10,750 bases of DNA from Prevotellaceae bacterium (GTDB taxonomy: Bacteria; Bacteroidota; Bacteroidia; Bacteroidales; UBA932). Where the stretch lies: positions 1-10,750 of the forward strand of contig JAIROQ010000008.1 of NCBI GenBank assembly GCA_031257455.1. Direction: 5' to 3'. Below, piece by piece: positions 24 through 10,750 of the stretch. The first letter of the stretch is position 1, and each line of letters begins with the position of its first letter. The translations under genes were made by a program, and so were the position numbers. The notes under the pieces were generated by a model. The model was not told the DNA's origin. It searched no databases and worked only from the letters and a program-made list of their open reading frames with translations.

Positions 24-118
24 GTTGAAAATTGAAAGTTGAAAGTTGAAAATGGCGGCAAGCGCAGTGGCGTCAGCCCAATTAGTCACATTACCACATT
101 AGCACATTAGCATATTAA
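24..118. repeat. Simple-repeat cluster with dispersed core
   Basis: Tandem GTTGAAA-type units (24-52) are followed by a GGCGGCAAGCGCAGTGGCG core and then CACATTAG-type units (about 84-112). Bases 38-72 (35 bp) are the exact reverse complement of 9649-9683. Bases 66-93 (28 bp) are identical to 3861-3888, where the CACATTAG tract is much longer. No reading frame with coding character is seen. Confidence 0.85.
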
Positions 119-467: not shown

Positions 468-497
468 TTGTCATTCTGAAAATTTCCTGTAACTTTG
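468..497 (+). promoter_or_regulatory. Bacteroidetes promoter of the PIN/antitoxin pair
   Basis: TTG (468-470) is separated by 19 bases from TAACTTTG (490-497), which matches the Bacteroidetes -33/-7 pattern TTTG-N19-21-TAnnTTTG. Transcription should start near 503-505. This lies downstream of the GTG at 497, so translation more likely begins at the ATG at 515. Confidence 0.75.
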
Positions 498-3860: not shown

Positions 3861-3978
3861 AGTGGCGTCAGCCCAATTAGTCACATTAGCACATTAGCAC
3901 ATTAGCACATTAGCACATTAGCACATTAGCACATTAGCACATTAGTCACATTAGCACATTAGTCACATTAGCACATTA
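3861..3978. repeat. CACATTAG 8/9-bp tandem array reaching into the PFOR stop codon
   Basis: A 28-bp entry sequence (3861-3888) identical to 66-93 leads into about 12 units: TCACATTAG, seven CACATTAG, TCACATTAG, CACATTAG, TCACATTAG and a last CACATTA (3881-3978). The final unit contains the TTA that is the reverse complement of the PFOR stop codon (3976-3978). The tract probably varies in unit number between strains, by slippage. Confidence 0.9.
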
Positions 3979-6900
3979 ATTTTCTCCTGCTAATCGTTTG
4001 TAGGTACTATACCGCCATTTGGCAAATTCTTCGGTACGCAGGAAAAGTTCTTCGGCTTCATTCGGGAACGTCTGCCCTAAGGAGGCATAGCGTACTTCGC
4101 CTTTCAGGAAGGCTTGGAATTTTGTCCAGTCGGGCTCCTTGCTGTCGAGGGAGAAGGGGTTCTTTCCGGCCTCTTCGAGGGCGGGATTGAAGCGGTATAA
4201 ATGCCAGTATCCACATTCCACCGCGAGTTTTTCTTCGCGCTGTGTAGCGCCCATGCCGTTTTTCAGGCCATGATTGATACAGGGGGCATAGGCGATAATT
4301 AATGACGGGCCGTTATAGGCTTCGGCTTCTTTCATGGCATTGAAGAATTGTTGCTGGCTGGCGCCCATCGCGACTTGTGAAACATATACGTAGCCATAGC
4401 TGATAGCCATCATCCCCAAGTCTTTTTTGCGTACCCGCTTTCCGGCGGTAGCGAATTTGGCCACCGCGCCTGCCGGCGTGGATTTCGAGGATTGCCCGCC
4501 GGTATTGGAATAAACTTCGGTATCCAGAACGAGTACATTTACATTTTCGCCGGACGCCAGCACATGGTCTAATCCGCCATAGCCGATGTCATACGCCCAT
4601 CCGTCTCCGCCGAAAATCCAGTTGGAACGCACCGTCAAGAAGTCTTTGAGTTCCGTAATTTCTTTGCAAATATCGCAGGAGCAGGCAGCGGCCAGTGGAA
4701 TAATCTGCCCGGTTAATTCGCGCGTTTTTGCAGCGTCATCGCGATGGCTAATCCATTCGGCAAATAATATTTTCAGTTCCGCCGGGCAACTTTGGCATTC
4801 CTGCCCTTTCAGCATCAGGGCGGCAAGGTGGTCGCGTACTCGTTCGGACCCCAGACGCATGCCGAGTCCAAATTCGGCGTTGTCTTCAAACAGCGAATTT
4901 GCCCATGCGGGGCCGCGTCCGTCCTTGTTTGTGCAATAGGGCGAAGCCGGGAAAGAGCCGCCGTAAATGGATGAACAACCGGTAGCGTTGGCAATCAACA
5001 TGCGGTCGCCGAAGAGCTGGGTAATGGCTTTGATGTAGGGCGTTTCCCCGCAACCTGCACATGCGCCCGAGAACTCGAATAACGGTTGGGAAAATTGACT
5101 GTTTTTCAAATTTGCCCGTTTGTCCTGCACGGTGTCTTTATAGCCGACATGGGCATGCAGGTAATCGAAATGCGCCTGTTCGGGCATTTGCGTTTCGAGG
5201 GGTTGCATCACCAACGCTTTTGTTTTTGCGGGGCAGACTTCGGCGCAGTTCCCGCAACCCGAGCAGTCGAGCGGCGATACTTGCATCCTGAAATTATATT
5301 CTTTGAACGGGCCGTTTCCTTTCACGCTTTTCAGTCCGCCGGGAACTTTTGCCGCTTCGTCTTCAGTCAGCAGGAACGGGCGGATAACCGCGTGGGGGCA
5401 GACATAGGAGCATTGGTTGCACTGGATGCAGTTTTCGGCTATCCATTCGGGCACATGTACTGCAATGCCGCGTTTTTCATAGGCCGCCGAACCGGCAGGC
5501 ATCGTGCCGTCTTCATAGTTTATAAACGCGCTCACCGGTAAATCGTCACCGTTTTGTGCATTCACCGTGTCGGCGACACGTTTTATCCATTCGGGCGCGA
5601 GGCGTTGATTGGTGTCGGCTTCGAACTTGCCGCTGTAACTAATCCATTCGGCAGGGATTTCCACTTTGGTTACTTCGCTGCCGCAATCTACGGCGGCGTG
5701 ATTACGTTTCACCACGTCTTCCCCTTTTTTGCCGTAGCTTTTTTCAATGGCTTTTTTCATTTCTTTCACCGCCTGTTCAAATGGAATAACATTGGCGATT
5801 TTGAAAAATGCCGCTTGCAGAATAGTATTGGTGCGGTTACCCAGTCCGATTTCTTCGGCTATCTTGGTTGCATTGATAATGTAAAAATTGATTTTCTTTT
5901 CCGCCAATGTGCGTTTCACAAAGTCGGGCAGGCGTTTTTTCGTTTCCTCGACATCCCACAGGCTGTTTAGCAGCAACGTCCCGCCCGGTTTGATACCGCG
6001 CAATACATCGTATTTGTGGAGATAGGAAGGCACATGGCATGCCACAAAGTCGGGCGTGGTAACGAGGTATGGCGAATTGATGGGGTGGTCGCCGAAGCGC
6101 AGGTGCGAGCAGGTAAACCCGCCTGATTTCTTACTGTCGTAGGAGAAATAGGCCTGACAGTATTTCGGCGTTGTTTCGCCGATAATTTTAATGGTATTCT
6201 TGTTTGCGCCCACCGTGCCGTCAGAGCCTAATCCGTAGAATTTGCCTTCAAATGTGCCGGCCTGCGCCAGACTGATTTCTTCTTTTTGCGGCAGCGACTT
6301 GAAGGTAACATCATCTATAATGCCTACGGTAAAACCGTTTTTCGGTTCATTCAACTTCAAGTTTTCAAATACGGCAAGCATTTGCGCCGGGGTAGTATCT
6401 TTTGACGATAAACCGTAACGGCCACCCACGACCAATGGCGCGTCGGATTGCCCGTAGAGCACGTCTTTTACATCCATATAAAGCGGTTCGCCGTTGGCGC
6501 CCGGTTCTTTGGTGCGGTCAAGGACGGCTATCCGCCGCACGCTTTTGGGCAACGCGCGCAGGAAATATTTGGCGGAAAACGGGCGGTAGAGATGTACCGC
6601 TACCACGCCTGTTTTTGCGCCCTGCGCATTCAAATAATCTACTGTTTCCCGCAGGGTGTCGCACACCGAACCGATGGCGACCACTACCTGTTCGGCCTGT
6701 TCATGGCCGTAGTACACGAACGGCAGGTAAGAACGCCCCGTCAGTTCGCTGATTTCGCCCATATAGCGCGCCACAATGTCGGGTACGGCATCGTAGAATG
6801 CATTGCCGGCTTCGCGCGACTGGAAATATACATCGGGATTTTGCGCCGTGCCGCGCGTTACAGGCGCGTTCGGGTTCAGTGCCCGTTGACGGAATGCGCG

Positions 6901-7670: not shown

Positions 7671-8648
7671 ATGTATTCAATTTCCGAAATACGCGATTGG
7701 GTGGACAAAGCGATAGCCAATCTAAATCTTCCCAAAGAACCGCAGGAACTCTACGCCCCGGTGTCCTACATGATGTCTATCGGGGGCAAGCGCATTCGCC
7801 CGGTGCTGTGTCTGCTTTCGTGCAACATGTTTTCCGACCGCATAGACAATAAAGTGTTGTTTCCGGCGGTAGGTCTGGAAATTTTCCATACATTCACACT
7901 GGTGCATGACGATATTATGGATAATGCCGCCCTGCGTCGCAACCAGCCGACTGTGCATCACAAATGGGATATGAATACCGCTATCCTTTCCGGCGATGTG
8001 ATGTGCATTGCCGCCTACCAGTATATTTGCCAGGCCGACCCTATTCACCTGTCGGAAATACTGCGGCTGTTCAATCAAACGGCGGCGCAGGTATGCGAAG
8101 GGCAACAGTTGGATATGAATTACGAACACCATGCCGTTATTAGCGAAGAAGAATACCTGCAAATGATTGAACGGAAAACGGCCGTACTGTTGGCTGCGGC
8201 AACCAAAATAGGCGCTATCGCCGGCGGCGCCACGCATCAGCAGATTGCCAGGATGCACGAGTTCGGCCGCCTGTTGGGGCTGGCGTTCCAGATTCAGGAC
8301 GACCTGCTTGATGTGTACGGTGACGCCGATATTTTCGGCAAAGCTATCGGCAATGACATTGCCGGCAACAAAAAAACATTCCTGCTCCTGCTGGCCATGC
8401 AGCAAGCCACCGGCAACGACAAGAAAAACCTGTTTTCCCTGCTCACCGACAAACAAATCTCCGCCGAAGAAAAAATAAAAAATGTCCTGGATATCTACCA
8501 GCGCCTGCAAATACGGCAACAGGTGGAAGAACATATTACCGGTTATTTTGAAAAAGCGTTGGCGCTGTTTGAAACCATAGACGTAGCGCCCGAACGTAAA
8601 GAGTATGTACAACAATTTTCCGAAAGGCTGGTCGGCCGCAATAATTAA
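7671..8648 (+). CDS. Short-chain all-trans polyprenyl diphosphate synthase
   Basis: The 325-residue class I isoprenoid synthase condenses allylic diphosphates with isopentenyl diphosphate. It shows GGKRIRP (38-44), the first Asp-rich motif DDIMD (80-84) followed by RR (89-90), SGDVM (107-111), KT (169-170), and the second Asp-rich motif FQIQDDLLD (D210, D211, D214) followed by GKAIGNDIAGNKKT. The first motif lacks the two-residue insertion of IspA-type farnesyl synthases, and Phe75 lies five residues before D80. A bulky aromatic there usually limits the product to C15-C20, so farnesyl or geranylgeranyl diphosphate is the best guess; exact chain length cannot be settled from sequence. It heads a probable two-gene unit with the DUF4254 gene 58 bases downstream, with no terminator visible between them. 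The products would feed menaquinone or undecaprenyl-carrier pathways. Confidence 0.93.
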   Translation: MYSISEIRDWVDKAIANLNLPKEPQELYAPVSYMMSIGGKRIRPVLCLLSCNMFSDRIDNKVLFPAVGLEIFHTFTLVHDDIMDNAALRRNQPTVHHKWDMNTAILSGDVMCIAAYQYICQADPIHLSEILRLFNQTAAQVCEGQQLDMNYEHHAVISEEEYLQMIERKTAVLLAAATKIGAIAGGATHQQIARMHEFGRLLGLAFQIQDDLLDVYGDADIFGKAIGNDIAGNKKTFLLLLAMQQATGNDKKNLFSLLTDKQISAEEKIKNVLDIYQRLQIRQQVEEHITGYFEKALALFETIDVAPERKEYVQQFSERLVGRNN

Positions 8649-9447: not shown

Positions 9448-9618
9448 ACCTGTGAATAACCCCGTGCGTAAGCGCGGGGGTGCAAGGCAGCCTCCTGCTT
9501 TTCGCGCGGCATACTGCCGGTGCATCGTGGAAAACCCGTACGCCGCGCGAGGTGCAGGGCGGGGCATGTGGTGCTACTAAGGTTGTTTTGTTATTAAAAT
9601 AAGGTAGAAATAAGGTTT
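9433..9618 (+). repeat. Structured dispersed element, copy 2
   Basis: This is the second copy of the element at 121-304. Its second hairpin has a 4-base GTAA loop, a GNRA-type tetraloop, where copy 1 has GTA. The long hairpin pairs CCTGC (9494-9498) and 9502-9513 with 9539-9550 and GCAGG (9554-9558). Against copy 1, one C-G pair of the upper stem has become T-A (both sides changed), while a neighbouring G-C has become A-C. The hairpin loop (CTGCCGGTGCATCGTGG and on) and the tail from GGCATGTGGTGC through TTAAAATAAGG are unchanged between copies. Confidence 0.8.
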
Positions 9619-9683: not shown

Positions 9684-9913
9684 GTAAAGAAAAGTACTTA
9701 AGTAACGAGTGGCAGAATTTAACGCAAACAAGCAAGGAAAACGAAACCGACAATTAACAATAGGCGGATTTAGGCATGTGCTACTCATATCGTTGGTTAA
9801 ATGCAGGCAAGTAGGGCGCACAATCCCAACACGCAAAAAGACATTCTTTGAAATTTTGTGGTAGCTTTGAACATGGCTTCGCCGCATGGAGACTCCGGCG
9901 CGTTGTGACTTGA

Positions 9914-9944
9914 TTGCCTTCTTTGAAATTTTGTGGTAGCTTTG
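9914..9944 (+). promoter_or_regulatory. Promoter embedded in CRISPR repeat 2
   Basis: TTG at 9914-9916, a 20-base gap and TAGCTTTG at 9937-9944 match the Bacteroidetes promoter pattern. The predicted start falls in the first few bases of spacer 2, so each full repeat could drive its own crRNA. Confidence 0.5.
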
Positions 9945-9989
9945 AACGATATTGATACAGTTAAAGGATACCCATCAGTTGTGACTTGA

Positions 9990-10020
9990 TTGCATTCTTT
10001 GAAATTTTGTGGTAGCTTTG
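9990..10020 (+). promoter_or_regulatory. Promoter embedded in CRISPR repeat 3
   Basis: The same TTG (9990-9992)-N20-TAGCTTTG (10013-10020) arrangement occurs in repeat 3. The predicted start is near 10025-10027, inside the presumed spacer 3. If the junction with the phage gene is real, this promoter would also face the phage gene. Confidence 0.5.
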
Positions 10021-10023
10021 AAC

Positions 10024-10053
10024 ATTGTCGCCGGTATCGACAATCTGAAGCTG
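10024..10053 (+). other. Presumed spacer 3 / protospacer, array-to-phage junction
   Basis: These 30 bases stand where spacer 3 is expected but are not followed by GTTGTGACTT; they continue in frame into the phage-like gene. They include a 7-bp inverted repeat, ATTGTCG (10024-10030) and CGACAAT (10038-10044). The 30-base length is taken from spacer 2 and is an inference. Confidence 0.6.
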
Positions 10054-10750
10054 CTAAATAAAATCAAGGGGAAACTTGAGCGAGTAATATTCAACAAGGA
10101 GTATATCCGGGATGTTGCGGATTTTGTGCGGGCGTACTCGGCTGTTGCCGAGATGCAGAATGATTATTTTAAGGGTCAGGATAAAAATTTTAAAGCAAAG
10201 GATTATCACAGCGCTTTAAAACAGGTGGCGGTGAATAATACGATTGACGGGCTGACGGAGTCCGGCGTTCGCGCCAATGTGTTAAGGCCGATAAACGATT
10301 TGCTGCTTACCGGCATTACGTCCGGTCAAAGTTATGCCCAGTTAGAGGAGGCACTTCGTAAAACGTTGACGGAAACGGAAGGAAATCCCGGTGCATTAAG
10401 CCGGTATGCGAAGACCTACGCTACGGACAGTATCAATCAGTTTTCACGGGAATATCTGACGGTAATCAGTAGTGATTTGGGGTATGAGTGGTATGTGTAT
10501 CGCGGTTCAAATAAGGCAACGACGCGGGAGTTCTGCGAGCATATGAGGAAGAAAGAGTTTGTGCATAAGAGTGAATTTCCCGACATATTGAGAGGGAAAA
10601 TAGACGGTCATCAATGCCGGATATATGATAAAACGGGCTTGCCCTACGGGATGAAAGAGGGGACGAATGTGGATAATTTGACGGCAAACTGCGGGGGTTG
10701 GAATTGTGGGCATCAATTAGTACCTTTGCGGGAAGAGAGCGTGCCGGAAA
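10024..10750 (+). CDS. Phage head-morphogenesis (minor head) protein, both ends missing
   Basis: The frame is open from the junction to the window edge (242 codons, no stop) and would need a start upstream that the CRISPR repeat does not supply; the same frame meets a TGA at 10000-10002. The first in-frame ATG is at 10153. Seen from the junction, residues 1-150 are helical and charged (for example VADFVRAYSAVAEMQNDYFK, ITSGQSYAQLEEALRKTL). The C-terminal part has YEWYVYRGSNKATTREFCEH, GKIDGH, KTGLPYG and a Cys/His end, NCGGWNCGHQLVPL (221-234). This ending, after a TTRxFCxH segment, resembles SPP1 gp7/Mu gpF-type minor head proteins of phages and prophages. Such proteins sit at the portal and are needed for head assembly. 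The assignment is by recalled motif resemblance only. It is probably phage DNA, perhaps not contiguous with the host genome. Confidence 0.6.
   Translation, partial: MVAGIDNLKLLNKIKGKLERVIFNKEYIRDVADFVRAYSAVAEMQNDYFKGQDKNFKAKDYHSALKQVAVNNTIDGLTESGVRANVLRPINDLLLTGITSGQSYAQLEEALRKTLTETEGNPGALSRYAKTYATDSINQFSREYLTVISSDLGYEWYVYRGSNKATTREFCEHMRKKEFVHKSEFPDILRGKIDGHQCRIYDKTGLPYGMKEGTNVDNLTANCGGWNCGHQLVPLREESVPE

What the first reader, a model, noticed from the sequence alone, without database searches (positions are those of the whole stretch)
9978..10750. CRISPR array runs without a break into a phage head gene: a candidate spacer-protospacer pair
A perfect repeat ends at 10023 and the next base begins an open frame resembling a phage minor head protein, with no further repeat. 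Array spacers are about 30 bp, so a natural explanation is that 10024-10053 is spacer 3 and is identical to a stretch of phage genome; the contig then passes from the array into the targeted phage through the shared 30 bases. That would reveal the phage attacked by this host. Since type II PAMs lie 3' of the protospacer, it would also show the PAM region directly: bases from 10054 on (CTAAATAAAA). Alternatives are a real prophage or rearrangement inside the array, or a phage carrying its own mini-array.
Basis: partly seen in the sequence, partly recalled or inferred. Interest (0 to 1): 0.85.

Follow-up and report, generated by a model that had tools for sequence, protein, structure and literature searches.

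The report
CRISPR array joined to phage gene
A bacterial CRISPR array runs, exactly at the end of a repeat, into the middle of a phage head gene of the kind that carries interchangeable toxin tails; relatives show that cut-off pieces of such genes can sit in bacterial chromosomes, so the join may be real, although an assembly error through a shared spacer is not excluded.

Summary
Two full 46-nt repeats (9902-9947, 9978-10023) and a truncated one (9843-9872) flank spacers of 29 and 30 nt; at 10024 an open frame begins and no further repeat follows. The repeat is probably type II: its 5' half is complementary to a tracrRNA-like stretch upstream of cas9 in two same-genus genomes. The frame is a MuF-type phage head protein lacking its first ~47 residues. 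The contig ends at 10750, where relatives sharing its last 33 residues diverge into different tails, so the end is probably an assembly fork. Against an assembly chimera: 5'-truncated pieces of this gene family adjoin host-like genes in three other bacterial contigs, once 17 kb inside a 77.5-kb contig. I favour a real join to a displaced phage fragment (about 0.5, plus 0.1 for a chance landing) over a chimera (0.35). Only reads can decide. Side finding: solitary copies of this repeat, some beside tRNAs and mobile-element genes, are candidate RNA anti-CRISPRs.

The parts
9843..9872 (+). truncated terminal repeat (3' 30 nt only; 9827-9842 does not match)
   Evidence: the G007 array has a degenerate terminal repeat at the same end
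9873..9901 (+). spacer 1, 29 nt
   Evidence: no exact match in viral contigs
9902..9947 (+). CRISPR repeat, 46 nt, one base different from 9978-10023
9948..9977 (+). spacer 2, 30 nt
   Evidence: no exact match in viral contigs
9978..10023 (+). CRISPR repeat, 46 nt, identical to the commonest repeat of the G007 array
9990..10020 (+). promoter-like motif inside the repeat (TTG, 20 nt, TAGCTTTG), pointing into the head gene
   Evidence: pattern match; the same pattern occurs in the other full repeat and at three more places in the window (468-497, 10698-10728, 8339-8368 on the - strand), so it is not specific. A repeat-borne TTG about 35 bp before each spacer, and TAnnTTTG as Bacteroidetes promoter motif, are named in PMC10309648 passages. 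Activity here is inference.
10024..10053 (+). putative spacer 3, copied from the head gene (inferred only from its position)
   Evidence: boundary at the repeat end; no second context found
10021..10749 (+). 5'-truncated MuF-type phage minor head protein gene (model positions 47-289 of 298), cut by the contig end
10651..10750 (+). end of the constant part of the head protein, shared residue for residue (33 aa) with P0162, P0163, P0164, which then differ; probable assembly fork

Best explanation
The tail of a type II-C-like CRISPR array is physically joined in the chromosome to a displaced piece of a MuF-type phage head gene, the kind of gene that carries exchangeable C-terminal toxin domains. 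Shown: the array, the truncation of the head gene exactly at the repeat end, the open frame, and the divergence of tails just past the contig end in relatives. Inferred: the join arose in vivo, most simply at a spacer (10024-10053) that had been copied from this gene, by recombination or deletion between the spacer and a copy of the gene elsewhere in the genome, or by an abnormal capture at the acquisition end of the array. The piece would act as a silent store of a toxin-tail module, open to recombination with phages through the constant part, and the promoter-like motif in the last repeat could read into it.
For: Close full-length relatives (P0079 82%, P0060 79%, P0080 79%) carry 47 further residues before the residue that matches 10024. 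Of 18 sequences scanned with the full-length model, 13 start at model position 1-9 and a weak one (L075) at 11; only the window (47) and three bacterial-genome contigs, L072 (114), L073 (130) and L074 (144), start late (L006's own protein was in the model). In these three the piece adjoins ordinary-looking host genes on its 5' side (gene identities read by eye, not searched). L072 lies about 17 kb inside a 77.5-kb contig with host-like genes on both sides and is followed by a remnant of a small gene that also lies downstream of the head gene in phage-gene contig L071 (23 of 46 residues identical), so it looks like a real captured phage fragment. PMC10309648 states that Flavobacterium II-C arrays are probably transcribed toward the variable end (passage); if so here, the junction lies on the side where new spacers arrive.
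Against: The exact coincidence of the break with the repeat end is odd for a random insertion and needs no in-vivo event if a spacer misled the assembler. The contig ends 727 bases after the junction (L074: about 260), so no far side is seen. P0162-P0164 have no stated source, so that they come from the same assembly is a guess, and only proteins, not DNA, were compared. G000 has no second match to the head gene, which a recombination partner would have given unless it was lost or not binned. No tail or immunity gene is in the window. No match to the portal protein of the distant relative L006 was found in nine genus genomes, a search without positive control. The introduction of PMC10309648 also speaks of spacer insertion at the 5' end of the array, which leaves the acquisition side here uncertain.
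Confidence: 0.5

Rival explanations
1. Assembly chimera: 10024-10053 is a spacer identical to a phage head gene, and the assembler passed from the array into the phage through the shared 30 bases.
For: The break is exactly at the repeat end. A recent spacer would match a current phage perfectly. Full-length relatives show that the gene normally continues upstream. Both the window and L074 end soon after the junction.
Against: No second context of the 30-mer was found. The shared ends at the fork are about 99 nt or more if the DNA is as alike as the proteins, so an overlap of 30 bases should not survive at the last k; a true phage path into 10024 would have broken the contig there (inference about assemblers, not tested). 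A truncated MuF piece lies deep inside a host-like contig elsewhere.
Confidence: 0.35
2. A phage fragment landed next to the array independently of any spacer; the coincidence with the repeat end is chance.
For: Other truncated MuF pieces start at different points (model 114, 130, 144), and a search for direct repeats just upstream of those three found no CRISPR-like array.
Against: A break exactly at a repeat end is expected about once in 76 positions of the array (arithmetic from the 75-76 nt spacing).
Confidence: 0.1
3. A phage or plasmid that carries its own mini-array.
For: Solitary copies of the repeat do occur beside mobile-element genes in this genus.
Against: The left 9.3 kb hold ordinary host genes (outer-membrane receptor, pyruvate:ferredoxin oxidoreductase, polyprenyl synthetase, DUF4254), and the head gene is cut, not flanked, by the repeat.
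Confidence: 0.03

Closest known systems
Bacteroidota type II-C CRISPR arrays (e.g. Flavobacterium psychrophilum, PMC10309648, passages seen)
   Same: promoter-like TTG/TAnnTTTG motif inside each full repeat; in the genus: cas9 and a tracrRNA-like anti-repeat upstream of it
   Different: no cas9 or cas1 match in the window's own draft genome; the array runs into a phage gene
MuF polymorphic toxins of temperate phages (PMC5576092) and Bxa of Bacteroides stercoris (PMC11699363), passages seen
   Same: phage head protein with a constant N-terminal part and variable, partly toxin-like C-terminal domains in relatives; phage-gene contig L071 has a 713-aa version
   Different: the window copy lacks about 47 N-terminal residues, its tail is not in the contig, and no phage neighbours are seen; relatives match Pfam Phage_Mu_F only below the curated cut-off
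Standalone toxin cassettes that recombine with polymorphic toxins (PMC3482391; only the start of the abstract seen in a listing); orphan modules of CDI and Rhs systems (recalled)
   Same: displaced C-terminal modules, here keeping part of the constant region
   Different: here the carrier is a phage head protein, and L072 looks like captured phage DNA
Solitary repeat units / Racr RNA anti-CRISPRs (PMC10651486, passages seen)
   Same: single copies of the host repeat in or beside mobile elements (side finding, not the junction)
   Different: type II-C-like repeat with its own promoter-like motif; expression and inhibition untested

Membership tests
type II (II-C-like) CRISPR array | regular repeats separated by unlike spacers of constant length | tested here: met
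   window: two full repeats plus one truncated, spacers 29 and 30 nt; G007: 20 repeats, 19 spacers of 29-30 nt
type II (II-C-like) CRISPR array | tracrRNA with anti-repeat complementary to the repeat, near cas9 | tested here: met
   in relatives, not in the window's genome: G007 C240 19 of 20 bases, G005 C55 18 of 20, both just upstream of cas9; no comparable match beside cas9 of the third genome, G008
type II (II-C-like) CRISPR array | cas9 and cas1 in the same genome | tested here: inconclusive
   cas9 model (TIGR01865) matches 3 of 9 genus genomes, 2 over the cut-off, not G000 (4 of 14 control genomes ring, none over the cut-off); cas1 0 of 9 (9 of 14 controls ring); the genomes are incomplete and the cas9 matches run off contig edges
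MuF polymorphic toxin | MuF-like phage head domain | tested here: inconclusive
   strong match to a model of relatives (E 6.6e-121); relatives P0079 and P0060 match Phage_Mu_F at E 0.003, below the Pfam cut-off; the window itself has no Pfam match
MuF polymorphic toxin | variable toxin-like C-terminal domain | tested here: inconclusive
   beyond the contig end; relatives with the same or a similar constant end carry other tails: CdiA_C over its cut-off in P0077 and P0150, below it in P0162-P0164, LPD3 in P0145, no family in P0165 and P0088
MuF polymorphic toxin | encoded in the head region of a phage or prophage | tested here: not met
   on the left side: the CRISPR array and host genes; the right side is not assembled
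MuF polymorphic toxin | adjacent immunity gene | not testable with these tools
   contig ends at 10750

The most novel reading that the evidence does not exclude
The variable end of a CRISPR array has captured a phage MuF toxin-carrier module in vivo, so that the promoter inside the last repeat now reads into it, and the toxin tail at this locus differs between cells of the population, exchanged by recombination through the constant part.
Probability: 0.15. Interest if true: 0.7.

Novelty: new variant of a known kind. Interest (0 to 1): 0.42.

Why it matters
If real, an immune array and a piece of a phage gene that it may have targeted have fused, a natural case of what happens to a host that holds both a spacer and its target. 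If it is an assembly chimera, it still points to a phage gene family met by this host. In both cases the contig end shows how interchangeable toxin tails can break assemblies, and the relatives point to captured fragments of phage head genes in bacterial chromosomes.

Tried and rejected
Prophage integrated at the repeat: rejected, because the break is inside the head gene; I saw no attachment-like structure there by eye. Comparison of the place next to the DUF4254 gene: 7 of 9 genus genomes, G000 included, have the gene; I read the downstream genes in 5 of the 6 others (L051 not read) and they differ by eye, so this says nothing about the array. Spacer matches to derive a PAM: spacers 1 and 2 have no exact match in viral contigs; 22 spacers (3 of the window, 19 of G007) blasted against 75 loci in hand gave only self matches in the 60 rows shown, where the listing was cut. 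Repeat core in viral contigs: none. Phage collection by tblastn: none. cas9 by PF18541: no match in 9 genomes, but no control rang either, so TIGR01865 was used instead. Direct repeats upstream of the other truncated MuF pieces: no CRISPR-like array; a 21-nt imperfect pair lies at the L074 breakpoint and a 20-nt pair far from that of L072. Literature on displaced MuF modules: searches (20 of 22 papers listed; 12 of 1,690 listed) showed none by title or start of abstract, apart from the general statement on standalone cassettes in PMC3482391; 'orphan' occurs 0 times in the main text of PMC5576092 and PMC11699363. That such modules are unpublished is not claimed.

Full report
What is there. The window is the whole of contig C39 (10750 bp) of a draft genome G000 (225 contigs, 80% complete). 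Its left 9.3 kb hold host genes: of five proteins scanned there, four match Pfam families (outer-membrane receptor, pyruvate:ferredoxin oxidoreductase, polyprenyl synthetase, DUF4254) and a 160-aa frame matches none. A short CRISPR array follows: a terminal repeat of which only the last 30 bases remain (9843-9872), a 29-nt spacer, a full 46-nt repeat (9902-9947), a 30-nt spacer and a second full repeat (9978-10023). From 10024 to the contig end there is no further repeat but an open frame that resembles a phage head protein.

The array. A genome of the same genus (G007) has a 20-repeat array with this repeat and 19 spacers of 29-30 nt, with a degenerate repeat at the same end. In G007 and G005 a stretch just upstream of cas9 is complementary to repeat positions 2-21 (19 and 18 of 20 bases); beside the cas9 of G008 no such match was found (G007 checked again). 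In G007 it is followed by a hairpin and a T-run, as in a tracrRNA (read by eye). So the repeat is probably type II and the crRNA strand is the window's + strand (inference). Each full repeat holds a TTG-N20-TAGCTTTG motif; the pattern also occurs at three other places in the window. PMC10309648 describes a repeat-borne TTG promoter and transcription toward the variable end in Flavobacterium II-C arrays, while its introduction speaks of insertion at the 5' end (passages). If the former holds here, 10024 lies on the side where new spacers are added. cas1 was found in 0 of 9 genus genomes (9 of 14 controls ring) and cas9 in 3 of 9, not in G000; these drafts are incomplete, so absence means little.

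The head gene. The closest relatives are 297-303 aa proteins, 79-82% identical, with 47 residues before the residue that matches 10024. A model of 18 full-length relatives matches the window from position 47 to 289 of 298. I scanned 18 sequences with it (window, L006, L057-L067, L071-L075; L007-L009 and L068-L070 were not scanned, and L006's own protein is in the model). L006, all eleven of L057-L067 and L071 match from position 1-9; L075 weakly from 11. L072, L073 and L074 match only from 114, 130 and 144. In L072 the piece lies between host-like genes on a 77.5-kb contig (genes named by eye) and is followed by a remnant of a small gene (23 of 46 residues identical to one downstream of the head gene in L071). 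In L073 and L074 host-like genes stand on the 5' side. Over 398 genomes drawn from the family, 5 match: one full-length (G095), and G000, G001, G084, G027 with late starts. By eye, in G084 the piece lies among phage-like genes and in G027 it is fused to another N-terminus, so not every late start is a lone piece. G001's contig has the same length as the L074 record, a Prevotellaceae genome. G000 shows no second head-gene match.

The contig end. P0162, P0163 and P0164 (252 aa, contigs of 1.1-1.3 kb, no source stated, as for the window's own protein P0078) begin with exactly the last 33 residues of the window and then differ, tails 76-78% alike; P0165 shares 27 and has another tail. Some relatives' tails match CdiA_C (P0077 and P0150 over the Pfam cut-off, P0162-P0164 below it) or LPD3 (P0145); P0165 and P0088 match none. 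This is the layout of MuF polymorphic toxins (PMC5576092; Bxa in Bacteroides, PMC11699363; passages). So the contig probably stops where one constant part forks into several tails, with about 99 or more shared bases if the DNA is as alike as the protein.

Reading the junction. The break exactly at a repeat end is best explained if 10024-10053 is, or was, a spacer copied from this gene. Whether the join was made by the assembler or in the cell is open. For the cell: the apparent large overlap at the fork, the absence of a break at 10024, which a phage path into the same sequence should cause, and truncated pieces of this gene family at host-like loci. For the assembler: the coincidence itself, contig ends soon after the junction in both G000 and L074, and no second copy of the gene in G000. 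I put a real join at about 0.6 in all (0.5 by way of a spacer or capture at the array, 0.1 by chance) and a chimera at about 0.35. The PAM claim cannot be made: no second copy of the 30-mer was found.

Side finding. Single copies of the repeat lie at six further places in the genus: G000 C69 and C199, G007 C111 and C237, G005 C38, and a less exact one in G002 C103; a half-copy is in G008 C18. ARAGORN finds a tRNA near 4 of the 6 (C69, C199, C237, C103) and none on the C111 and C38 contigs. In C69, C199 and C237 the copy stands between a tRNA-Leu gene and the 3' end of a very large phage-type gene (best PHROG match is to a 3427-position family of unknown function, another to a DarB-like one; the name polyvalent protein is recalled). 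C69 also has a tyrosine recombinase next to it. A terminator-like hairpin follows in the repeat direction in C237; I see similar ones by eye in the others. They fit the description of solitary repeat units, shown to act as RNA anti-CRISPRs in other types and once proposed to enable viral integration in arrays (PMC10651486, passages). Folding of three of them is only modestly better than shuffles (z -1.3, -2.0, -2.3). Function is untested.

Noticed in passing
L004 6229-6275 (-), L005 263-310, L041 1927-1972, L040 minus strand 298-343, L043 1885-1930, L042 minus strand about 50-95: Solitary copies of the host's CRISPR repeat; a tRNA is found near 4 of 6, three stand beside the end of a very large phage-type gene and one beside a tyrosine recombinase. 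Candidate RNA anti-CRISPRs for a II-C-like system.
   Followed up: partly
L072 6001-7616: A probable captured phage fragment in a Paludibacteraceae chromosome: head gene from model position 114 with a C-terminal tail, and a remnant of a further phage gene, between host-like genes.
   Followed up: partly
L088 3-1982 (-), L089 4083-5450, L090 1-309 (-): cas9 in three genus genomes each time runs off a contig edge, and cas1 is found in 0 of nine genomes.
   Followed up: no
window 66-117, 3861-3979, 158-305, 9471-9618: Intergenic repeats: an 8-nt tandem unit (ACATTAGC type) and a 148-nt element in two copies 93% alike.
   Followed up: no
L039 about 1470-2060: Beside the G007 array lie two diverged copies of a short coding fragment, one abutting the degenerate terminal repeat; only a Pfam match far below its cut-off.
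   Followed up: partly
L074 5976-6257: This contig too ends inside the head gene, and P0150 begins with the same 31 residues, another probable assembly fork; a 21-nt imperfect direct repeat lies at its breakpoint.
   Followed up: partly
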